From NCBI GenBank assembly GCA_020725605.1, contig DYER01000105.1, forward strand, positions 1 to 56,434: a stretch of 56,434 nt of DNA, in the 5' to 3' direction. The position numbers and the translations under genes were made by a program. Source of the stretch: Ammonifex sp. (GTDB lineage: Bacteria > Bacillota > Desulfotomaculia > Desulfotomaculales > DYER01). Under the pieces are notes generated by a model, which did not search any database, was not told the origin of the DNA, and saw only the letters and a program-made list of their open reading frames with translations. Of the stretch, positions 5,892-29,654 are shown piece after piece. The stretch's first letter is position 1, and each line of letters opens with the position of its first letter.

Positions 5892-7214
5892 TCACGCGGC
5901 CCGCGGCGATACTTTCACAAACTTGTTCAGCCGCTTGTCCCACCGGTAGACTTCCGGCCCTTTCAGCCTGACGGGCCCTTTCAGCCCGATGCAGTGCCCG
6001 AAGAGGTAGTTCTTAAGGTTGTTGCCCGATCCGTTCAAGTCGGCGTGCATGACGGTCTTGCATTTTCTGCACGCCCAAAGGCCCCGGCGGACCCTGAACG
6101 ACCTGTTTTTGGTTCCGCATTCGTAGCAGGTGGTGGAGCTGTGGAGTTCCCTTGTTTCGTCCGGGCAGACCTGCCTCATCAGGCTCTTGTACTCGTGCTG
6201 GCGCCTTATCTGGTCGTAGGGAAGCTGGTTGATTTTCTGGCTGGCCTTCTTGTTCTTGTCTCCCGTCCGGGCCTTTCTCCTGATCCCGGTCAGGTCTCCC
6301 AGGACGGAGAAGGCGACGTCTTCGGCCCGGTCGAGCTCGGCCATGAACTTCGTCAGGGCGTGGGTCATCTGCTTGATGCGGCGGTCCAGCTTCTTGAGAG
6401 CCTCCCGCTTTGCGTTCAGGAGCGCCTTCCATCTGCGGGAGCCCTCCTTGCACCGGGACATTTTCTGTTGGAACTCGGCGATGGTCTTGTTCCGGTACTG
6501 GACCAAGGAAAGCAGCTCCCGGCAGACTACGAGCTGCTGGCCTCCCTCGCTGGTGGTCCGGGCGATTATGCCCGCGTTAATGTCGTACGCGGAGACCTTG
6601 TCCGCGGGTATTACGGGCACCGTGCCGAAGTCCCAGGTGACGTGGAGCTCCAGCCCGGCGAGCCGCTTCCCGCGGTGGACCGCCTTAACCTTGACCTCCA
6701 CTGGGACGCCCTTGAGGACGGTGCCGTCGGGGAGCGTCAGGGTGTCGGAGCCTTCCGGGAGGGGGACTTCGACCGCGCCCAGCTTGCGGGAAAGCTTCAG
6801 GAGCAGGCGGCCGTCCCGGTACTCGAAGCCCTGCTTCTTCCAGGTGATGGTGCGCAGGGTGTCCTTCGGCTTGAACCCGGGCGGGCGCATCTCCTCGTGG
6901 CCGTTTTTCCGGTGCCTTGCGCAGGAGCGCACGGCCTCGAAGTACTCCTCGACGACGGCCTGGGCGCTCTGGGAGTGGAGCTGCTTCCAGGAGGCGTAGC
7001 TCCTGAACTTTTTCTTCAGCCCGGCCTCGGTCGGGTACTTCTCGCCCCTCGTGCGGGCTTCGCGGCTCTCCCAGACGCAGGAGTTCCAGATTTTCGTTCC
7101 GGCCAGCATGGGCGCCTCGAAGACGGGGAGCCAGACGTCCAGGGGCAGGAAGGTCCTCCTGGTCAGGTAGAGCCGGTTTTTCCGCTTCTTGCCTTTCCTT
7201 TCGGCCCAGGCCAT
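5892..7214 (-). CDS. tnpB: IS605-family TnpB with unusual RuvC-II motif
   Basis: A 440-residue TnpB. RuvC-I aspartate is in AYDINAG near residue 210 and RuvC-III aspartate in HADLNGSGNN near 390, with a CYECG..CRKC zinc ribbon between. At RuvC-II, where most TnpBs have a glutamate (V-x-E-D-L), this protein has VLGDLTGIR near 306, so glycine sits at the expected catalytic position. Related TnpBs with GD at this place exist, and shifted active-site acids have been reported, so this alone does not show inactivity. The gene follows tnpA after 13 bases with its own AGGAG site. Confidence 0.88.
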   Translation of the reverse strand: MAWAERKGKKRKNRLYLTRRTFLPLDVWLPVFEAPMLAGTKIWNSCVWESREARTRGEKYPTEAGLKKKFRSYASWKQLHSQSAQAVVEEYFEAVRSCARHRKNGHEEMRPPGFKPKDTLRTITWKKQGFEYRDGRLLLKLSRKLGAVEVPLPEGSDTLTLPDGTVLKGVPVEVKVKAVHRGKRLAGLELHVTWDFGTVPVIPADKVSAYDINAGIIARTTSEGGQQLVVCRELLSLVQYRNKTIAEFQQKMSRCKEGSRRWKALLNAKREALKKLDRRIKQMTHALTKFMAELDRAEDVAFSVLGDLTGIRRKARTGDKNKKASQKINQLPYDQIRRQHEYKSLMRQVCPDETRELHSSTTCYECGTKNRSFRVRRGLWACRKCKTVMHADLNGSGNNLKNYLFGHCIGLKGPVRLKGPEVYRWDKRLNKFVKVSPRAA

Positions 7215-7227
7215 CGGCTTTCAGCTC

Positions 7228-7623
7228 CTATTTGTCCTGGCACTCCTCGATGTAGCGCCGGACGGTTTCGGAGGAGACCGTTCCGGCGGTGCCCACGTAG
7301 TAGGTGCGGGTCCAGAGCCGGGGGCCGGTCTGCCTGCCGAGCTCCGGGAACTTCCGCTGCAGGTAGCGGGAGGTGTAGCCCTTGATGGTGTTGATGAGCA
7401 CGGACGGCGCGTGCCTTGGCGGGGCCGAGACGAAGAGGTGGACGTGGTCGGGCTGGACGGAAAGGCTCAGCACCTCGACTTCCCTTTCCGCGCAGACCTT
7501 CCGCACCAGCCGTTCCAGCTCCTCGGCCACCGGGCCGGTCAGCACCTTGCGGCGGTACTTCGGTATCCATACGAAGTGGTAGTTTATGTTGTAGTGGGCG
7601 TACCTGGTTTTCCTGGTTTTCAT
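7228..7623 (-). CDS. tnpA: Y1 HUH transposase of IS200/IS605
   Basis: A 131-residue transposase that cuts and joins single-stranded DNA. The HUH metal-binding motif is HVHLF in the middle. The catalytic tyrosine lies in the C-terminal helix region with TYYVGTAG and VRRYIEEC. Length and the N-terminal YHFVWIPKYR motif match the family. It looks intact and could mobilise both this element and other elements with matching end hairpins. Confidence 0.93.
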   Translation of the reverse strand: MKTRKTRYAHYNINYHFVWIPKYRRKVLTGPVAEELERLVRKVCAEREVEVLSLSVQPDHVHLFVSAPPRHAPSVLINTIKGYTSRYLQRKFPELGRQTGPRLWTRTYYVGTAGTVSSETVRRYIEECQDK

Positions 7624-8738: not shown

Positions 8739-8865
8739 TTCGGAAACCCCTTTTTGCTAGAAAGGTGACCCATTCCGTTTTTATTTCGCCTTTCGTTTGT
8801 TTTTTCCTTTCTTGTTACCTTACTCGTGGCAAAGAAATCCTTTACTACAAAGGGGGCGAAACCAA

Positions 8866-9669
8866 TTGGTCTTGCCGGTTCTTCTCCTGGCCCTGACGCT
8901 GTTCCTGCTCTTCTACACCCTCGCGGGCGGCCCGCTGCCGGCGGGCGAGGAGGTCCGCGGCCTCGCGGCGCGCCTCGGCCCTCCGGCGGCCTCCGCCGGG
9001 TGCGCCTTCCTCGCGGCCGCGGCCCTCTTCGGCACGCCCCTGGCCGCACTTTCCTGGGCCGTGGTGGGCTGGCTTCTGCCCGGCTGGGCGAACGACTTCC
9101 TGGCCGCCAGGAGCCGCGCCCGGCTACGGGCCCTGGCCCGGGACTTCGCTGCCGCGGCGGCGGGCATGTACGCGGCCGGCCAGACCACTCCCGAGGTGGT
9201 GCGCGCCGCGGCCGGCGAGTTCCCCGAGCCCTTGCGGACCGACTTCGCGGAGATGGTGGCCGAGCGGGAGCGCAACAGGAACTTCAGCTTTCCGCGGGCC
9301 TTCAGGGGACTGGCGGAAAGGTACGGACTGCCCGAGTTCCGGGCCGTGGCGGAGATAGTCGAGGCCAGCGAGAGGGCGGGCGGCCCCCGGGCCGCGGCCA
9401 GGGGGCTGGAGCGGCTGGGGCGGGCCCTCAGGCAGAGGGACCGCCTGCTGGCCGAGCGCGCCAGGGCCCTGGCCGAGGTGAAGATGGCCGGGTACGTGGT
9501 GGTGGGCCTGCTCCTGGCGGGCCTGGCCGCGGACGCCACGGCGCTCCGGCATTACTTCTCCGGGGGGTCCGGTAAGCTGGCGGCGGGGGCGGCCTCGGCC
9601 GTCGTGGCGGGCCTGATATTGATGCTCAGGAAGTTTTCCGCAAATCCCGATCTGGAAGGGGGTGCCTGA
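8866..9669 (+). CDS. tadB: TadB-like pilus platform protein, copy 1
   Basis: A 267-residue integral membrane protein of the type II secretion F superfamily, with two N-terminal helices, a cytoplasmic helical region and two C-terminal helices. The cytoplasmic part has the family pattern: an AAGMYAAGQTTPEVVRAA segment and EVKMAGYVVVG entering the third helix. It should dock on the TadA ATPase and drive pilin extraction. TTG 8866 is chosen because AAAGGGGG lies 9 bases upstream and the frame enters the first helix at once. The start lies just past the AT-rich insert. The gene overlaps tadC by 8 bases. Confidence 0.75.
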   Translation: MVLPVLLLALTLFLLFYTLAGGPLPAGEEVRGLAARLGPPAASAGCAFLAAAALFGTPLAALSWAVVGWLLPGWANDFLAARSRARLRALARDFAAAAAGMYAAGQTTPEVVRAAAGEFPEPLRTDFAEMVAERERNRNFSFPRAFRGLAERYGLPEFRAVAEIVEASERAGGPRAAARGLERLGRALRQRDRLLAERARALAEVKMAGYVVVGLLLAGLAADATALRHYFSGGSGKLAAGAASAVVAGLILMLRKFSANPDLEGGA

Positions 9670-10474
9670 CGTGCTGGCGGCTCTGGGCGTCTTCGCTTGC
9701 GCGGCGGCCCTGCTCCTGGCCCTGGCCCTGCCGGGCGAGTGGTCCCCATCCCCCGCGGCCCTGGCGGCCGGCTCCCTGCGGCGCAAGATCTACGGGTGGC
9801 TCCTGCGGGGCGACCGGGTGCTGGCCTACGAGCTGGCCGGCAGGAGCCCGGAGGAGGTGCTGAAGAGGGCCGCGCTCCTGGGCCCCGCCATGGGCGCGCT
9901 GGCGCTCATCCTCTGCTGGCGGGCCCTCGGCGCGCTGGCCCTGCTCCCGACCCTGGCCCTGGCGGCGGCGGTCCTGGTGGCCCTGGACGCGGCGGTGGCC
10001 AACGAGTGCCGGCGCTGGCGGGAGCGGCTGGCGGACGGCGTGCCCGCGCTGGTGGCCTTCGTCCCGGCCTTCCTGGAGACCGGGGTGATCACCCCGCGCC
10101 GGGCCCTGGAGGCGGCCCTGCCGTTCCTGCCGGAGCCCCTGCGCTCCGAGCTGGGCCGCGCCCTGGGGCCGCTGGCCCGCAAAGGGAGCCTGGAGGCCCT
10201 GGACGACCTGCGGCGGCGGGCCGCCGACCCCCTGGTGGACGCCGTGTGCTTCAGGCTGAAGGCGGGGTGGGACGCCGGGATCGGGCCCGACATCTTCGAG
10301 GACCTGGCGGAGCAGGTCCGGAACGCGCGGGAGGTCGCGGCGGCGCGGGCCACCGCGGCCCGGGGCGGGCTGCTGGCCCTGGTGTGCGTGGTCGGCCTGC
10401 TGGGGGCGGCGCTGGTCTTCGGGTACCCGGCGTGGAGGCACATCACCGGAGCGATGGGAGGGATGTTCAGATAG
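9662..10474 (+). CDS. tadC: TadC-like pilus platform protein, copy 1
   Basis: A 270-residue membrane protein with the same architecture as the preceding gene: N-terminal helices, a cytoplasmic domain beginning RWRERLADGVPALVAF with a FLETGVITPRRALEAA segment, and a C-terminal helix pair. Such pairs form the inner-membrane platform of Tad pili. Start GTG 9662 overlaps the tadB stop; GTG 9671 is possible. The carboxy end MFR-TAG contains the ribosome binding site region for the next small reading frame. Confidence 0.72.
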   Translation: MPDVLAALGVFACAAALLLALALPGEWSPSPAALAAGSLRRKIYGWLLRGDRVLAYELAGRSPEEVLKRAALLGPAMGALALILCWRALGALALLPTLALAAAVLVALDAAVANECRRWRERLADGVPALVAFVPAFLETGVITPRRALEAALPFLPEPLRSELGRALGPLARKGSLEALDDLRRRAADPLVDAVCFRLKAGWDAGIGPDIFEDLAEQVRNAREVAAARATAARGGLLALVCVVGLLGAALVFGYPAWRHITGAMGGMFR

Positions 10475-22022: not shown

Positions 22023-22292
22023 GTGCTGCGGACTTTGAAGGAGTTCTGGCGCGACGAGCGCGGGGGCATTCTGACCACGGAAAACATCGGCTACGTTCTC
22101 CTGGTCGCCGGCGCCGTGGCCCTGGTGGGCTTCGGCTTCACGGCGCTGGCCCGCGGCAAGATGGGGAACGTCTTCGGGGCCCTCAAGGGCATGAAGGCCA
22201 TGAGCGGCAACGTCACCGAGTCGTCCGGCTACACCTACACGGCGACCACGGACCCGAACACGGGCATCCAGACCGGCGCGACCGGCGGCTAA
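22023..22292 (+). CDS. Flp-like pilin A
   Basis: An 89-residue protein beginning with a basic/acidic leader (LKEFWRDERGG), then ILTTENIGYVLLVAGAVALV. This is the leader-plus-hydrophobic-helix plan of Flp pilins, with a glutamate five residues into the mature helix. The tail is threonine/glycine rich. GTG 22023 follows GGGGGGTGC. The first 20 residues are nearly identical to the next pilin, so the two are duplicates that diverged at the C-terminus. Confidence 0.78.
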   Translation: MLRTLKEFWRDERGGILTTENIGYVLLVAGAVALVGFGFTALARGKMGNVFGALKGMKAMSGNVTESSGYTYTATTDPNTGIQTGATGG

Positions 22293-22355
22293 GGTCTCTC
22301 GGGGAAGGGCGCGGGGGGAGCCTGCGCCCCTTTTCCTTTTTCGGGGGTGGTTTCC

Positions 22356-22571
22356 GTGCTGCGGACTTTAAGGGAATTCTGGCGCGACGAGCGGGGCGGC
22401 ATCATCACGACCGAGACCGTCGGCTACGTCCTCATCATCGGAGGCGCGGCCGCCATGATCGGGTACGGCCTGGCGGCGGCCATGCGCGGCCTGGCGGGCA
22501 AGAACGTCAAGACCATCAAGTGCGCGGACCCGTCCTACGCGGCCGCGCACCCGGAGTGTTCCACTCCGTGA
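22356..22571 (+). CDS. Flp-like pilin B
   Basis: A 71-residue paralogue of the pilin at 22023, with leader LREFWRDERGG and helix IITTETVGYVLIIGGAAAMIG. The short tail contains two cysteines (KCADP and HPECS) that could form a disulfide, which fits the VKOR-thioredoxin gene in the same operon. GTG 22356 has GGGGGTGG upstream. Confidence 0.78.
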   Translation: MLRTLREFWRDERGGIITTETVGYVLIIGGAAAMIGYGLAAAMRGLAGKNVKTIKCADPSYAAAHPECSTP

Positions 22572-23116
22572 CCTGGCGGGACGCGGTCCTCCTCGCGGGC
22601 GTCGGCCTGGCGGCAGCCATGGACCTGAGGACGGGTTTCGTCAGGAACTGGCTCACCGCGCCGCTGCTCCTGGCCGGCTGCGCGGAGGCCTTTCTCCGGG
22701 GCGGGCCGGCCGCCCTCGGGGGGAGTCTGGCCGCCGCGTGCGGCGCGGCCTTCCTGACCTTCGCCTTCGCCTGCGGCCCCGGGGGCGGCGACGTCAAGCT
22801 GGCCCTGGCCGCGGGGGCGTGGCTCGGCACGGAGCGGCTGGCGCCCTACCTGCTGGGGGCCTGGAGTACGCGGGTTCTGCTCAACCTGCTGGTGCGGCTC
22901 AGGGTGCGCGGGTGGAGCCCGGCGCTTGCCTTCCGGGACGCCCTTGCGGAGCTGCGCACCTGGCGGGTCGCGCTGCCCGGGGAAAGGAGCTTCCGGCTGT
23001 TCCAGCGGGCGCGCGAGAGGTGCGGCGGCGACCCGGACGCGCCCGGGGTCCCGGGGGCGCTCTGGGTGGCGGGCGGCGTCCTGGCGGCAGTCTTGTTAAA
23101 GGGGGTGACCGGTTAA
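22568..23116 (+). CDS. Prepilin peptidase (A24) 3
   Basis: A 182-residue membrane protease. Catalytic aspartates are in AAMDLRTGFVRNW near residue 18 and GPGGGDVKLALAAG near 73. GTG 22568 overlaps the pilin B stop. The segment after the last family helix carries an unusual 50-residue cytoplasmic loop rich in arginine before a final helix. Directly following pilins A and B, it is the most likely processing enzyme for them. Confidence 0.82.
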   Translation: MTWRDAVLLAGVGLAAAMDLRTGFVRNWLTAPLLLAGCAEAFLRGGPAALGGSLAAACGAAFLTFAFACGPGGGDVKLALAAGAWLGTERLAPYLLGAWSTRVLLNLLVRLRVRGWSPALAFRDALAELRTWRVALPGERSFRLFQRARERCGGDPDAPGVPGALWVAGGVLAAVLLKGVTG

Positions 23117-23293
23117 ATGCGGCGGGCTTTTTTCTCCGGGGCCAGGGGCTTCGCCCTGCCGGGCTACCTGGTGCTCCTGCTCATCATCGGCGGCATCGCC
23201 CTGCTCATCTCCGGGGCACTCATAGAGGCGCTCAAAGGGACCCACGGCAACGCATTGAACCTCGTACAGGACCTCACCAGCGGCGGCTTCTGA
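23117..23293 (+). CDS. Very small pilin-like protein C
   Basis: A 58-residue frame beginning MRRAFFSGARGF, then ALPGYLVLLLIIGGIALLISG, and a short polar tail. A basic leader, a GF-A junction and a single helix make it pilin-like. ATG 23117 immediately follows the preceding TAA. It is short enough to be missed by usual gene length limits. Confidence 0.65.
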   Translation: MRRAFFSGARGFALPGYLVLLLIIGGIALLISGALIEALKGTHGNALNLVQDLTSGGF

Positions 23294-23298
23294 GGGGC

Positions 23299-23724
23299 GT
23301 GGTCCTGGTTGAGTTTCTGATGGTGGTGCTGGTGCTGGCCTTCCTGACCTTCGGGGCCGTGGACTACTGGGTGGTGCTGGCCAAGCACCAGTACGCGGAG
23401 CACTTGATGCACCACTACCTCCAGAGGATGCAGGTGGAGGGGCGCCTCTCCTCGGCGGACGAGGCCGCGCTGCTCAACGACTTCCAGCGCTTCTCCTGCC
23501 CGGTGAGCGACCTGACGGGCACATACCCGCGGGAATCCCAGGGCCAGCCCCGGGCCCTGAGGAACCCACAGGACCTGGAAGGCAGCGCGGTGCGCCTCAG
23601 GATAGCCTGCCGGCCGGTCCCCCAGCCGCTCCTCTCCGGGAGGCTGCTCCGGGGCGCCGCAGCCGGAAGCGACTTTCGCATCGTGGTCGGGGGGTCGATG
23701 CTAAGTGAAAGGGTCACGCCTTAG
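23299..23724 (+). CDS. TadE-like pseudopilin
   Basis: A 141-residue protein with the TadE opening (VEFLMVVLVLAFLTFGAVDYW, glutamate near position 5), then a helical stalk and a small globular part with two cysteines. TadE/TadF proteins are minor pseudopilins of Tad pili. Start GTG 23299, six bases after the pilin C stop; the 3' end overlaps the next gene by 20 bases. Confidence 0.7.
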   Translation: MVLVEFLMVVLVLAFLTFGAVDYWVVLAKHQYAEHLMHHYLQRMQVEGRLSSADEAALLNDFQRFSCPVSDLTGTYPRESQGQPRALRNPQDLEGSAVRLRIACRPVPQPLLSGRLLRGAAAGSDFRIVVGGSMLSERVTP

Positions 23725-24355
23725 GCGGCCGTTCGGAGGCCGCGGCGCAGCGCTGTTGTGGGCGCTGATGTTCCTGCCCGTCCTTCTCCTGGCGCTCGCC
23801 TTCGGGGTAGAGCGCGTCCAGTCGGTCACGGAGGGCGACGTGGACGTGCAGCGGGCCCTGGAGCAGGCGGTGAAGGCCGCGGCCATGCAGGTCACGCCCG
23901 AGAGCCAGGCCGCGGGCCGGCCCAGGATCCACGCGGCCCGCGCGCTGGCGGCCTTCGAACGCATGCTGGCGGCCAACCTGGGCCTGGACCCGGCCACCCT
24001 GTCGCCTCTGGCGGGCTCGGCGCTCAAAGAGCGGCCGGACTTCGTCCTGGTGGTCTACAACGGGGACGCCTCCTTCGCGGCGGGCGGCGCGCAGGCCGCG
24101 TGGAAGTACCGGTTCAGCGGGGGCGTCCTCACGGGCGGCCCCCTCACCGCCGCGGGCTTCCCCTGCAGGTTCGGCGTGACCTCCTCGGACGTGCTTCCCG
24201 GCGGCGGGGGGACGATCAACGTCACCCTGGACATGCCGGGCTGCGTGGGGGTGGTGAGCGCGAAGGGCAGGAACGTCCTGGGGAGGACGCCGCTGGCCCC
24301 GGTCCGGTACGCGGCGGCCAAGATCGTGTGCCCGTCGGGGGCGTGCGGAGCGTGA
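23705..24355 (+). CDS. TadE/TadG-like pseudopilin
   Basis: A 216-residue protein with a short basic leader, GRGAALLWALMFLPVLLLALAFG as its single helix and an extracytoplasmic domain of about 180 residues. Three cysteines near the C-terminal half (PCRFG, PGCVG, VCPSGAC) could be disulfide-bonded. The plan is that of TadG-like tip or minor proteins. GTG 23705. Confidence 0.6.
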   Translation: MKGSRLRRPFGGRGAALLWALMFLPVLLLALAFGVERVQSVTEGDVDVQRALEQAVKAAAMQVTPESQAAGRPRIHAARALAAFERMLAANLGLDPATLSPLAGSALKERPDFVLVVYNGDASFAAGGAQAAWKYRFSGGVLTGGPLTAAGFPCRFGVTSSDVLPGGGGTINVTLDMPGCVGVVSAKGRNVLGRTPLAPVRYAAAKIVCPSGACGA

Positions 24356-24434: not shown

Positions 24435-24623
24435 ATGGAGATGCCCGGAAGGCTGGAGTTCGAGGAACTGGCGGCGAAGTACGGCGCCGGCGCGGTCCCG
24501 TGCAGGGAGGGGTCGCACGCGGACCGCTGGCTGGCGCGGTCCCCCGGCTGGACGGAGGCGGCGAGGAGGGGCGGGGCGGTGGTGTACAGGTGGGCCGGCA
24601 GAGGGTCAACTACCCCCCACTGA
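24435..24623 (+). CDS. Small unknown protein, probably cut by IscB element
   Basis: A 62-residue soluble-looking frame (MPGRLEFEELAAKYG, then WLARSPGWTEAARRGGAVV). The same frame continues open upstream to about 24354 without a start codon. Its last residues run into the left end of the IscB element at about 24603, so the gene appears truncated by the insertion. Confidence 0.4.
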   Translation: MEMPGRLEFEELAAKYGAGAVPCREGSHADRWLARSPGWTEAARRGGAVVYRWAGRGSTTPH

Positions 24624-24639
24624 AGTGGGAGGCATGACG

Positions 24640-24899
24640 CCTCGGAGTTGACCAGCCTGAGGGTCCGACCCTAAGGACAAGGGGATGAGGGCGCTACGTT
24701 ATCCGGGTCACGGCACCCTGGGGTGCTCCTCCAGCTCCAGGCCCTGCCGCCGGCGGTTAAACAGCGAGCTCGGGGTGCAGCGAGCGGTGCCGCCGGCGCG
24801 ACAAGCCCGGGTAACACTGGCGAGGAGGGCGCTGGGGAGAGTCCGCCCCGGCGCGACACCGGCCCCGTAAGGGGCCTCCCAAGAGGAGGGGAAGCGCGC
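24640..24899 (+). ncRNA. Omega RNA (HEARO-type) for IscB
   Basis: About 260 bases of highly structured GC-rich DNA directly upstream of iscB without a coding frame. Local stems include GGGTCC..GGACCC-like pairing at 24660-24675 and GGCCCC.GTAA.GGGGCC at 24862-24875, and a larger complementary pair GCCGCCGGCG/GCCGCCGGCG at 24747-24818. In IscB elements the guide RNA scaffold is encoded just 5' of iscB, and its guide is the flank outside the left end. The ribosome binding site AGAGGAGGGG at 24881-24890 closes the region. Confidence 0.8.
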
Positions 24900-26252
24900 G
24901 TGGTTTTCGTTCTGGACGCGAGGAAGAGGCCGCTCATGCCCTGCTCCGAAAAGCGGGCGAGGAAGCTGCTGGCGCAGGGCAGGGCCGTGGTGCATCGCGT
25001 GGTGCCCTTCGTCATCCGGCTGAAGGACAGGCGGGCGGAAAACTCTGACCTCCAGGCGGTCAAGCTCAAAATCGACCCCGGCTACGAGGCCACCGGGATC
25101 TCCGTGGTGCGAGTGGCGGAGGGAAAAGAGGTGGCCGTCTTTTTCGCCGAACTCCACCACCGGATGGACATCCGGGAAAGGCTTGAGGCCAGGAGGGCCC
25201 GTCGCAGGAGCAGGAGGAGCCGCAAGACGAGGTACCGCGCCCCCAGGCTTGACAACCGCCGGAGGCCGGAGGGCTGGCTTCCGCCGAGCGCGAAAGCCCG
25301 CATCCAGCAGCTTCTGAGCATGGTGGAGAAGCTCCGCCGCTGGCTGCCCGTCGCGGAAATCGTGGTGGAGTCGGTCAAGTTCGACACCCAGAAGCTCCAG
25401 AACCCCGAAATATCCGGCATCGAGTACCAGCGGGGAGAACTCTTCGGCTACCGCAGGGTGCGCGAGTACCTGCTGGAAAAGTGGGGCCGGAGGTGCGCCT
25501 GGTGCGGCAGGGAAGGGGTGCCGCTGGAGGTGAACCGCGTGGTGCCCAGGTCCAGGGGCGGCACGGACCGGGCGTCGAACCTGGTGCTTTCCTGCCGGGA
25601 GTGCGCCGAAGCCAGGGGGAACAGGCTGCCGCAGGAGTGGCTGGAAGAGCTGAAGGGGTCCGGGCGTGATACGGACAAAAGGCGCGCGGAGAACATCCCG
25701 AAAATCCTGGCCCGGTTAAAAGAACCCCTCAAAGGCGCGGCCTTCATGAACGCCTCCCGCTATTTCCTGGTGAGGAAACTCGAAGAGTTAGGGTTGCCCG
25801 TTTTCACTGCCCCGGCCGCCCTGACCGACCGCAACCGCGCCAGATTTGGCCTGCCCAAGACCCACTACTTCGACGCCTGCTGCGCGGGGGAGGTGCGGGG
25901 GGAACTGGAGATTGCCGCGGAATACGTCCTGCACTTCCGGGCCACGGGCCGGGGGACCAGGCAGATGTGCATACCGGACCGGCACGGCTTCCCTAGGGGC
26001 CACCGTTCGAGGCACAAACTCCACTGCGGCTTCATGACCGGCGACCTGGTGGCGGCGGAGGTGCCGCGGGGGAAGTATGCGGGGAGGCACGTTGGTTTCG
26101 TGGCCGTGCGGGCCAGCGGCTACTTCGACATCAAGGATTTTCGCGGCAAGCGGGTAGCACAGGGGATAAGCCACAAGCACTGCAGGCTGGTCCAGAGGTA
26201 CGACGGCTACTCTTACGGAAAGGAGGTAGCGGCGCATTCCTCCTCCCAATGA
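24900..26252 (+). CDS. iscB: IscB RNA-guided nuclease, HNH site degenerate
   Basis: A 450-residue IscB, the ancestor-type relative of Cas9. Domains in order: PLMP domain (RPLMPCSEKRARKLL) at the N-terminus; RuvC-I LKIDPGYEATG near residue 56; arginine-rich bridge helix; RuvC-II VVESVKFD near 155; HNH from CAWCG near 199 to CRECAEARGN; RuvC-III KTHYFDAC near 321. RuvC residues are present. In the HNH domain the expected E/D-H of the EHIVP motif reads NRVVP, so the catalytic histidine and its acidic neighbour are replaced. The zinc-binding cysteine pairs remain. GTG 24900 is 9 bases after a strong site. It should cut at most one strand. Confidence 0.92.
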   Translation: MVFVLDARKRPLMPCSEKRARKLLAQGRAVVHRVVPFVIRLKDRRAENSDLQAVKLKIDPGYEATGISVVRVAEGKEVAVFFAELHHRMDIRERLEARRARRRSRRSRKTRYRAPRLDNRRRPEGWLPPSAKARIQQLLSMVEKLRRWLPVAEIVVESVKFDTQKLQNPEISGIEYQRGELFGYRRVREYLLEKWGRRCAWCGREGVPLEVNRVVPRSRGGTDRASNLVLSCRECAEARGNRLPQEWLEELKGSGRDTDKRRAENIPKILARLKEPLKGAAFMNASRYFLVRKLEELGLPVFTAPAALTDRNRARFGLPKTHYFDACCAGEVRGELEIAAEYVLHFRATGRGTRQMCIPDRHGFPRGHRSRHKLHCGFMTGDLVAAEVPRGKYAGRHVGFVAVRASGYFDIKDFRGKRVAQGISHKHCRLVQRYDGYSYGKEVAAHSSSQ

Positions 26253-26265
26253 ATTGGGAGGCATC

Positions 26266-26534: not shown

Positions 26535-29500
26535 ATGTTGCCGTTTCTCCTTCGACGTGTGTCTAAGCTCTGCCTGACACACGAGGCCGTTATGGCTCTC
26601 TTGTTCTGCGGGCTTCTCGCGTACTTAACTTTTCTTGTTACCCCTCAGCCAGCCTATGCCGGGCGAACCCTGTACGGATGTTCCCTGGTGGCTTCGGGTA
26701 CCGGTCCCGGAACGTTTTATTCGGGAACCGCTACTGTCCCTTCCGGACCGACATGGGTTCTGGCCCATATTGTGGGCACCCTCGTGGGAGTCGATTTGGG
26801 CGACAGTGGCCAGTGTAGCTGGGGATTCGTCGAGTACAGTACAGACGGCGGCGGTTCTTGGACCAGCCTTGGCATAGACTACTCAGGTTGGTCGTCTAAA
26901 TCCGTCAACGAATGGCTCGAAGTTCCGGCGGGTAGCCTAGTTCGACTCAAGATAATAAGCGAAGCGCAGGGCCGTTACTCCGAAATCCGCCTGACCCAAT
27001 TTCTCGTTCCCGATGATACCGTTGCCGATGGAGTTTCTTTATCACCCACAACATATAGCGCCGGTTGGTACTATTCTTCGGAATACGTCGTTCCGTCCGG
27101 CTATGAGCTTGTTGCGGTGCAGGTTCAGGGTTTTTCCTACCTGACCTGGTATATGAAAGCGTACCTTGAGGGCTGGAACGGTTCCTCTTGGGTTGCGCTA
27201 GGCTATTTGGAGTATGGGTCCGGCTACTTGTATTACTATACCACGAGCACGATGGGTTCCATAGTCCCGTTGAGCACTTACGCCTCTAGAGGCGAACTGG
27301 CACACAACCCTTTCTACGCATACGTCCCTCCGGGCATCAGCAAGATCAGAATGCGCAGTTCCCATTCCGGACAGGGCGTCGTCTCAAAGGTGGTGTTGTA
27401 CCCTTCCTCCGCTCCCACCATTACTGGAGTCTTCTCGGGAGGTTTAGGGTGGTCAAATCAGGCTGGCCGCGGATGGGTCCGAGTGGAGTGGGCACCTAAG
27501 CCCCGCGTCGCGGGGTACCGCGTCTGCGTAGTTGACGGCAGGGACTGGCGGCAATTCGACGTCGGCAACAGGACGTACTTCGACACGAGGGAGGAGAAGA
27601 TCTACCCCAGCGAGTCCTGGCTGGACTCCCTGGCTGACAACAGCTACACCGGCGATCCGTTCAACCACACGCGAGGTGGCCTGGATCTCCGTGACGATAA
27701 CAATAAGCTCTTCCGGAAAATGCAGACCGACCCCTCCTGGAAGGACAAGCACCATTACGAGTTCATTGTGCTGGCCTACAACGCGTCAGGGGTGAGTCCG
27801 TGGCCGTGGGAATCCGGCGTATGGGGATGGAACGGCGGTCACTCGAGCTGGGTCACCCTCCCCAACCGCACCGACACCCAGGCACCGCAGGTGACGTCCC
27901 TAAGCATCAACGATGGTGCGGCGAACGCCGGTAGCAGGAACGTGACCTTGACCATAGCGGGGTCCGACCCCACCCAAGCCAGCTATGAAGATACCTGGGT
28001 CCGCTCCAAGCTGGCATGGCTGGAGGTTTCCAACGACAACTTCGCTACCAAGCAGTCCTACCGCGTGGGAGGCTATCTGCCAGACCGGGACGAGGACCGG
28101 ATCGGTGACAGCGGAAACCTGCGCGTGTGGACCAGGCGGGTGTGGTGGGCGGACGTTCCAAACGTGTGGTTCCACGTCGGCACCTGGGGCGGCTCCGGTG
28201 CAGACCACTACCACGGGGTAACGGTGGCCGAGAACCTCAACCTTCCCGTCACCGCGGACATGTACCTCAGCTACGGGTTGTACTTGAACCAGCAGAGCAA
28301 CCTGCGGGTGACCGTGCAGTTCCAGATGACCGACGGGAAGTGGACTTGGGAGCTGCCGGAGTGCGTGGACCAGAACGGAATTCCGGCGCTTGGCCCGAAC
28401 GGGTGGGGCTATGACCTCAACAGCCGGGCCTACAATCAGGTGTACTACCGGCAGATAAGCCTCGCCCCCCTCGCGGGCAGGTCCATCTCGAAAATCGTCA
28501 TCTGGATAAACGACAATCCCGGTGTTCCGGACGGAGACTACTACGGGCACATCAAGAACATCCGCATAGGTCCGGCCTGGCTGACGGACATCAGCCAAGA
28601 GAACGTCTGGCGTATCCCGTGGACCCTCACGGCGGGCGAGGGGACGAAGACCGTAAGCGTTAGGTTCGTCGACTACGCGGGCAACGTGTCGCCCGTGCAG
28701 TCCGCGTCCATCTACCTGATTAACGACACCCAGCCGCCCTCGGTGAGCGTGACCGTCAACGGCGGCGCGGCCGTAACCACTTCGCAGTACGTGGACCTGG
28801 CGGTGGAGGCCCAGGACAACCTCTCCACTCCGGACATGCTTCAGATGCGCCTCAGCGCCGACGGGGGCCAGACGTGGGGTGGCTGGGGAACCTACGCCGT
28901 CCAGGTGAAGGGGTTCGACCTCGGCTCGACCGGCGGCCCCAAGACGGTCTGCGCGCAGGTGAAGGATGCGAACGGGAATGTGGGCACCGGAGTGGCGACG
29001 ATCTACTACGCCAAGCCGGGGGAGGCTACCAGCACTCCGTCCGACAGCACGCCGCCTCCCACTGGGGGTTCCCAGGTGGGTGAAAACCTGAACGGTGTTG
29101 CCATCATGCTGAACGGCCAGCCCACCGTGGTAGTGCAGGGCGACTCCATTACTCTGAGCCTGAGCAACATCAACACCCAGGCAGGGCCGGTGCAACTGTA
29201 TGTCAGCTTCGACGGAGTGAACTGGAGCCCGCCGGACCAGATTCCCACGGGGCAGACCACCTTCAGCAAGGTCCTGACCTTCCCGCGCGAGGGCACCATC
29301 GCGGTCAGCTACAAGCTCAAGAACTCGTACGGGGCGGAAAGCCCGGTCTACACCAGGTATTACCTGGTGGACTACACTGCTCCGGTGATAGAGAAGGCCG
29401 AGGTGCTGGGCGGCCTGACCGCGGTCACTTCGAGCACCGCCCCGCTGCTGCTCCGGGCCAGGGACAACCTGAAGGCCGGGATGTACTACAGCCTGAGCCT

Positions 29501-29654
29501 GGACGGCTCCACGTGGACGTCCTGGGCGGCCCTGCCTTCGGACGGCGTGGTCAACTCGCCCACGCTGGCGTCGGGTTACAACCGGGTTCGCGTCAAGGTG
29601 ATAGACCGGGCAGGAAACGCAGCGTCGGCGACGGTGGGCGTGTTCAAGCTCTGA
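26535..29654 (+). CDS. Large secreted adhesin-like protein with Ig-like domains
   Basis: A 1039-residue protein with a signal peptide ending PAYAG near residue 43. The first 300 residues are rich in glycine, serine, tyrosine and tryptophan. Next is a fibronectin-like segment (GYRVCVVDGRDW). At least three bacterial Ig-like repeats follow, opening DTQAPQVTSLSIN, DTQPPSVSVTVN and YTAPVIEKAEV, each with an aromatic strand like LSADGGQTWGGW or LSLDGSTWTSW. ATG 26535 follows AGGGGGGACC. The first kilobase is less GC-rich than the rest. No membrane or cell-wall anchor is seen at the C-terminus. It probably acts at the cell surface. Confidence 0.7.
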   Translation: MLPFLLRRVSKLCLTHEAVMALLFCGLLAYLTFLVTPQPAYAGRTLYGCSLVASGTGPGTFYSGTATVPSGPTWVLAHIVGTLVGVDLGDSGQCSWGFVEYSTDGGGSWTSLGIDYSGWSSKSVNEWLEVPAGSLVRLKIISEAQGRYSEIRLTQFLVPDDTVADGVSLSPTTYSAGWYYSSEYVVPSGYELVAVQVQGFSYLTWYMKAYLEGWNGSSWVALGYLEYGSGYLYYYTTSTMGSIVPLSTYASRGELAHNPFYAYVPPGISKIRMRSSHSGQGVVSKVVLYPSSAPTITGVFSGGLGWSNQAGRGWVRVEWAPKPRVAGYRVCVVDGRDWRQFDVGNRTYFDTREEKIYPSESWLDSLADNSYTGDPFNHTRGGLDLRDDNNKLFRKMQTDPSWKDKHHYEFIVLAYNASGVSPWPWESGVWGWNGGHSSWVTLPNRTDTQAPQVTSLSINDGAANAGSRNVTLTIAGSDPTQASYEDTWVRSKLAWLEVSNDNFATKQSYRVGGYLPDRDEDRIGDSGNLRVWTRRVWWADVPNVWFHVGTWGGSGADHYHGVTVAENLNLPVTADMYLSYGLYLNQQSNLRVTVQFQMTDGKWTWELPECVDQNGIPALGPNGWGYDLNSRAYNQVYYRQISLAPLAGRSISKIVIWINDNPGVPDGDYYGHIKNIRIGPAWLTDISQENVWRIPWTLTAGEGTKTVSVRFVDYAGNVSPVQSASIYLINDTQPPSVSVTVNGGAAVTTSQYVDLAVEAQDNLSTPDMLQMRLSADGGQTWGGWGTYAVQVKGFDLGSTGGPKTVCAQVKDANGNVGTGVATIYYAKPGEATSTPSDSTPPPTGGSQVGENLNGVAIMLNGQPTVVVQGDSITLSLSNINTQAGPVQLYVSFDGVNWSPPDQIPTGQTTFSKVLTFPREGTIAVSYKLKNSYGAESPVYTRYYLVDYTAPVIEKAEVLGGLTAVTSSTAPLLLRARDNLKAGMYYSLSLDGSTWTSWAALPSDGVVNSPTLASGYNRVRVKVIDRAGNAASATVGVFKL

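What the first reader, a model, noticed from the sequence alone, without database searches (positions are those of the whole stretch)
24900..26252. IscB with a naturally degenerate HNH nuclease site
The RuvC residues (KIDPG, VVESV, HYFDA) and the PLMP domain are kept, but the HNH EHIVP motif reads NRVVP: the catalytic histidine is arginine and the acidic residue before it is asparagine. By analogy with Cas9 and IscB this should leave a RuvC-only nickase, or a protein used for binding. The rest of the HNH (cysteine pairs, RGGT..SNLVL) is conserved, so the change looks specific rather than decay.
Basis: partly seen in the sequence, partly recalled or inferred. Interest (0 to 1): 0.8.

Follow-up and report, generated by a model that had tools for sequence, protein, structure and literature searches.

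The report
IscB with dismantled HNH nuclease centre

Summary
Confirmed and sharpened. Window 24900-26249 encodes a full-length IscB (450 aa; NCBIfam guided_IscB E=2.5e-114) behind a complete guide RNA (Rfam HEARO, 123.8 bits) and between hairpin transposon ends. The zinc cysteines, the predicted HNH fold and all four RuvC residues are kept. None of 174 distinct homologues (44-73% identical) lacks any of the three. Damage is confined to HNH: 7 of 8 private changes at near-invariant columns lie there, and HNH protein change is about twice that between relatives, while the rest changes at nearly the usual rate. The matching SpCas9 triple mutant supports prime editing, which requires non-target-strand nicking. 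Best reading: a natural non-target-strand nickase, functionally like IsrB but by point mutation. It is a singleton from one fragmented assembly, so conservation in a clade is not shown and early decay is not excluded. In passing: RuvC-dead, HNH-intact IscBs also exist (8 of 174, about six origins), one form shared by six Acidithiobacillus genomes.

The parts
24586..24604 (+). guide portion of the omegaRNA (flanking DNA just outside the left end; length assumed)
   Evidence: sequence directly 5' of the HEARO match; in IscB elements the guide is encoded there (established knowledge). No second target in the own genome above the control.
24605..24835 (+). omegaRNA scaffold (HEARO, RF02033)
   Evidence: Rfam 123.8 bits, E 2.4e-26, full-length model 1-211; close relatives that pass the cut-off score 86.6-96.2 bits.
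24613..24632 (.). left-end hairpin
   Evidence: inverted repeat, same position as in relatives.
24900..26252 (+). IscB coding sequence, GTG start, 450 aa
   Evidence: NF040563 E 2.5e-114, 381.6 bits, cut-off 175; RRXRR and HNH Pfam domains; homologues start at the same residue.
25074..25076 (+). RuvC-I catalytic Asp D59 (kept)
25368..25370 (+). RuvC-II catalytic Glu E157 (kept)
25533..25538 (+). N212 R213 in place of D/E-H: HNH metal ligand and general base lost
   Evidence: 0 of 174 homologues share either change
25605..25607 (+). A236 in place of Asn: third HNH catalytic residue lost
   Evidence: Asn in 174 of 174 homologues
25863..25874 (+). RuvC-III H322 and D325 (kept)
26242..26261 (.). 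right-end hairpin, overlapping the stop codon; followed by TTGTGA resembling the GGTGA found after the right end of relatives
   Evidence: inverted repeat; comparison with relatives

Best explanation
A real, complete IscB transposon-type unit (ends, omegaRNA, protein) whose HNH nuclease has been switched off by loss of the whole catalytic triad while RuvC, PLMP, bridge helix and C-terminal domain stayed under constraint. With its omegaRNA it should bind guide-matched DNA next to a TGA-type motif and nick only the non-target strand through RuvC, as IsrB does. HNH probably stays as a folded zinc domain that still helps hold the guide-target duplex. Shown: the sequence changes, their uniqueness, their restriction to HNH, an intact RNA, a predicted intact HNH fold. 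Inferred: expression, RNA-guided binding, nicking, which strand.
For: Triad loss with RuvC kept, unique among 174 homologues. dN(HNH)/dN(rest) is 0.78-1.07 in pairs with the query against 0.32-0.84 in other pairs. omegaRNA intact, 123.8 bits. HNH predicted folded, block pLDDT 79-93 over 191-250, strand 209-213, strand 228-232, helix 233-239. Best solved folds are IscB and IsrB. In SpCas9, D839A+H840A+N863A still supports prime editing, which needs the non-target-strand nick, and H840A+N863A leaves only that nick whereas H840A alone leaks (PMC10063541). IsrB, lacking HNH, is an omegaRNA-guided non-target-strand nickase (PMC9581776).
Against: Single copy in one fragmented assembly (115 contigs, 85% complete). 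The seven close relatives in its clade have an intact HNH triad. The rest of the gene also looks slightly faster than in relatives, so early decay is possible. K310D lies close to RuvC-III, although TbaIscB is also non-basic at that place (alignment). No expression or activity data.
Confidence: 0.6

Rival explanations
1. Early pseudogene: HNH broke first by chance in a single IscB copy and the rest has not had time to decay; there is no selected function.
For: Singleton with no clade conservation; mild excess change in the rest of the gene; IscB copies with in-frame stops do exist in relatives.
Against: Open frame and omegaRNA intact; all four RuvC residues kept; only 1 of 8 private changes at conserved columns lies outside HNH although 37 of the 50 such columns do.
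Confidence: 0.27
2. RNA-guided DNA-binding protein that does not cut, serving as a regulator by analogy with TldR.
For: HNH dead; its HNH region is more basic than in seven close relatives (+4 against -4 to +2).
Against: RuvC catalytic residues all kept; the guide is the element's own flank and no second target stands out in the own genome (13 hits against 12 in the control); transposon ends kept, no sign of domestication.
Confidence: 0.08
3. Sequencing, assembly or strain-mixture artefact.
For: One fragmented assembly; reads not available.
Against: At least four base substitutions in three codons at two places, plus further private residues in the same domain, no frameshift, 92% GC at third positions in HNH.
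Confidence: 0.05

Closest known systems
IscB (HEARO ORF / OMEGA nuclease; NF040563)
   Same: whole architecture: PLMP, split RuvC, arginine-rich bridge helix, HNH with zinc finger, C-terminal domain, omegaRNA directly upstream
   Different: HNH catalytic triad replaced (N, R, A), so cutting of the guide-paired strand is not expected
IsrB (natural OMEGA nickase, e.g. DtIsrB, PDB 8dmb)
   Same: expected activity: RuvC-only nick in the non-target strand, omegaRNA-guided; 8dmb gives the highest target-normalised TM-score among the listed fold matches (0.76)
   Different: IsrB lacks the HNH domain altogether; here the domain is present, folded in the model and inactivated by point changes
Engineered SpCas9 HNH-dead nickases (H840A+N863A, D839A+H840A+N863A)
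   Same: the same active-site positions, with exact spacing
   Different: here they arose naturally, in IscB, as N/R/A instead of A/A/A
TldR (nuclease-dead TnpB)
   Same: natural inactivation of a nuclease in an IS200/IS605-type RNA-guided protein
   Different: TldRs lose the RuvC, are domesticated and repress; here RuvC is kept and transposon ends remain

Membership tests
IscB | PLMP, RRXRR/bridge helix and three RuvC motifs with catalytic D, E, H, D | tested here: met
   RRXRR E 2.1e-66; D59, E157, H322, D325 present
IscB | HNH domain inserted between RuvC-II and RuvC-III | tested here: met
   Pfam HNH 29.3 bits, cut-off 21.4; folded in the model
IscB | catalytically competent HNH triad | tested here: not met
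   N212, R213, A236; so it is a member by descent and architecture, not by full activity
IscB | upstream omegaRNA (HEARO) | tested here: met
   RF02033 123.8 bits, gathering 83
IscB | RNA-guided double-strand cleavage | not testable with these tools
   needs biochemistry; predicted not to hold
IsrB | absence of the HNH domain | tested here: not met
   HNH domain present
IsrB | omegaRNA-guided nick in the non-target strand | not testable with these tools
   predicted from intact RuvC and dead HNH
TldR-like repressor | dead RuvC | tested here: not met
   RuvC residues intact
TldR-like repressor | guide matching a host regulatory target | tested here: not met
   no off-locus target above the control with up to 3 mismatches; genome 85% complete, guide length assumed

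The most novel reading that the evidence does not exclude
An IscB has turned into an IsrB-like non-target-strand nickase by natural point mutation of its HNH centre, kept by selection; together with the RuvC-dead, HNH-intact IscBs found here (about six origins, one shared by six Acidithiobacillus genomes), natural IscBs repeatedly become single-strand nickases of either polarity.
Probability: 0.4. Interest if true: 0.72.

Novelty: new variant of a known kind. Interest (0 to 1): 0.52.

Why it matters
IscB is regarded as the ancestor of Cas9, and IsrB as the HNH-less relative that preceded it. A natural IscB with a dismantled HNH but a preserved RuvC and omegaRNA shows that the step can be undone by point mutation, and offers a ready-made small nickase candidate with lesions at the same three positions that are mutated in Cas9 to remove leaky target-strand cutting. 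It also makes testable whether a nick is enough for the element's life cycle. The comparison with RuvC-dead IscBs asks which of the two cuts these elements can do without.

Tried and rejected
Closer relatives sharing N-R-A: none among loci from genome contigs or viral contigs or from class and phylum genome searches; plasmid and phage records hold IscBs at 73% identity or less, whose HNH residues I did not read one by one. Second guide target in the own genome: 13 near-matches with up to 3 mismatches (one of them the locus itself) against 12 in the control, so rejected. Compensating histidine: none in 195-255. Literature: no report of a naturally HNH-dead IscB found in the held library, but key papers (Altae-Tran 2021, the 2023 transposon-guide paper, Wiegand 2024) are not held, so priority cannot be excluded. 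Linker change E186 to RR looks harmless: OgeuIscB-type and TbaIscB sequences have the same linker length there (alignments). The RNA folding z-score was weak (-1.67), so the covariance-model score carries the RNA claim. An unneeded look-up gave nothing.

Full report
WHAT IS THERE. Window 24900-26249 (+) encodes a 450-residue protein that matches NCBIfam guided_IscB over the whole model (381.6 bits, E 2.5e-114) and Pfam RRXRR and HNH. A complete HEARO/omegaRNA lies directly upstream at 24605-24835 (123.8 bits against a gathering score of 83); among the 71-73% relatives those that pass the cut-off score 86.6-96.2 bits. Hairpins at 24613-24632 and 26242-26261 sit where relatives have their transposon ends, and TTGTGA follows the right end where relatives have GGTGA. 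The only Y1 transposase found in the genome lies in the same window (7228-7623, minus) beside a TnpB, an IS605-type element that might act in trans.

THE LESION. The third HNH residue is also gone: A236, 25605-25607. Positions 212, 213, 227 and 236 have the same spacing as SpCas9 D839, H840, N854 and N863 (numbering as in PMC10063541), so three of these four are changed and the equivalent of N854 is kept. No histidine is left in residues 195-255, whereas every one of 174 homologues has one. RuvC D59, E157, H322 and D325 and the four zinc cysteines are intact. AlphaFold2 from 59 sequences gives mean pLDDT 83.9 with 79-93 across 191-250 and the usual strand-strand-helix order; the closest solved folds are IscB and IsrB complexes.

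IS IT SPECIFIC? In 174 distinct homologues (44-73% identity) D/E212, H213 and N236 are invariant, even in copies with stop codons and in copies with a dead RuvC. Counting changes found only in the query at columns conserved by residue class in 99% of 99 homologues gives eight, seven of them in residues 185-247 (13 of the 50 such columns): hypergeometric p 1.2e-4. Pairwise dN in HNH relative to the rest is 0.78-1.07 for pairs with the query and 0.32-0.84 for pairs among relatives. From three-way differences of those values (query, L003, L136; my arithmetic) the query's own branch has dN about 0.18 in HNH and 0.14 elsewhere; L003's has about 0.01 and 0.07. So HNH has been released, while the rest of the protein is at most mildly faster than usual. 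This is what a switch to RuvC-only function predicts; a recent chance loss that has not yet spread to the rest is not excluded.

HOW IT SHOULD WORK. In SpCas9, H840A alone still cuts some target strand, H840A+N863A gives only a non-target-strand nick, and D839A+H840A+N863A retains prime editing, which needs that nick (PMC10063541). IsrB, which has no HNH, nicks the non-target strand under omegaRNA guidance (PMC9581776). The protein here has the same three positions altered and an intact RuvC, so a non-target-strand nickase is the best prediction. Two other private changes do not obviously harm RuvC: E186 to RR gives the linker length of the solved IscBs, and K310D lies where TbaIscB has a non-basic residue (alignments). 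The guide is the element's own left flank and has no second target in the genome beyond the control, which argues against a TldR-like regulator.

CONTEXT. The query falls in a starred group of eight rows (query plus seven) of which only the query is HNH-dead. The query's genome also holds an IsrB-like gene without HNH (G000:C79) with an omegaRNA-like match below the cut-off (43.4 bits). No intact IscB was found in this 85%-complete genome.

THE MIRROR CASE. Eight of the 174 homologues have lost RuvC acids but keep HNH (L072, L079, L099, L100, L124, L138, L157, L162); the tree needs seven changes of state in all, hence about six for RuvC loss. In Acidithiobacillus the RuvC-II Glu is Met or Leu in eight loci from six genomes (L233, L234, L237, L240-L243, L248), and four of the five loci of that group scanned have HEARO above the cut-off (L079, L100, L241, L242). 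L124, L138, L157, L162 and L099 also carry it. In this sample HNH loss is therefore the rarer direction (1 of 175) and RuvC loss the commoner (8 of 175).

LIMITS. One fragmented assembly, no reads, no other genome of the same family held; survey weighted to sequences like the query and capped at the best 80 per scan; synonymous sites partly saturated; guide length assumed; key primary papers not held.

VERDICT. Observation confirmed and strengthened (third catalytic residue). HNH loss is close to certain from sequence; non-target-strand nicking is likely but untested; long-term selection for that state is open. A new variant of a known kind.

Noticed in passing
L233, L234, L237, L240-L243, L248 (Acidithiobacillus; L233 and L234 are the same genes as L079 and L100): A group of IscBs in which the RuvC-II catalytic Glu is Met or Leu (LSTMLHRFDT against LSQELVRFDM), some also with RuvC-I Asp replaced, HNH intact, open frames, several with HEARO RNA above the cut-off: a candidate natural target-strand nickase shared by six genomes.
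   Followed up: partly
L124, L138 (same phylum), L072/L099 (Actinomycetes assemblies), L157, L162 (viral contigs): Further IscBs with lost RuvC acids (D59K twice, D59A, E157A/G/K, and H322K with D325E) and an intact HNH triad; with the Acidithiobacillus group about six separate losses.
   Followed up: partly
L002 (own genome, contig C79), 1093-2229 minus: IsrB-like gene of 378 aa without HNH, with a sub-threshold HEARO-like RNA beside it (43.4 bits); the genome thus holds an IsrB and an HNH-dead IscB but no intact IscB was found.
   Followed up: partly
window 5892-7623 (-): IS605-type element: TnpA (Y1 transposase, the only one found in the genome) and TnpB with a TNB domain.
   Followed up: partly
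L010 and L127: Distant IscB relatives with KINRKLY / NVNRKLY where the HNH dyad would be and a shortened zinc region: possibly other degenerate HNH domains.
   Followed up: no
window 8797-10474 and 22023-24355 (+), 26535-29654 (+): The element sits downstream of genes that look like a Flp/Tad pilus cluster (T2SSF, Tad domain) and is followed by a 1039-aa protein with a weak Ig-like match.
   Followed up: no
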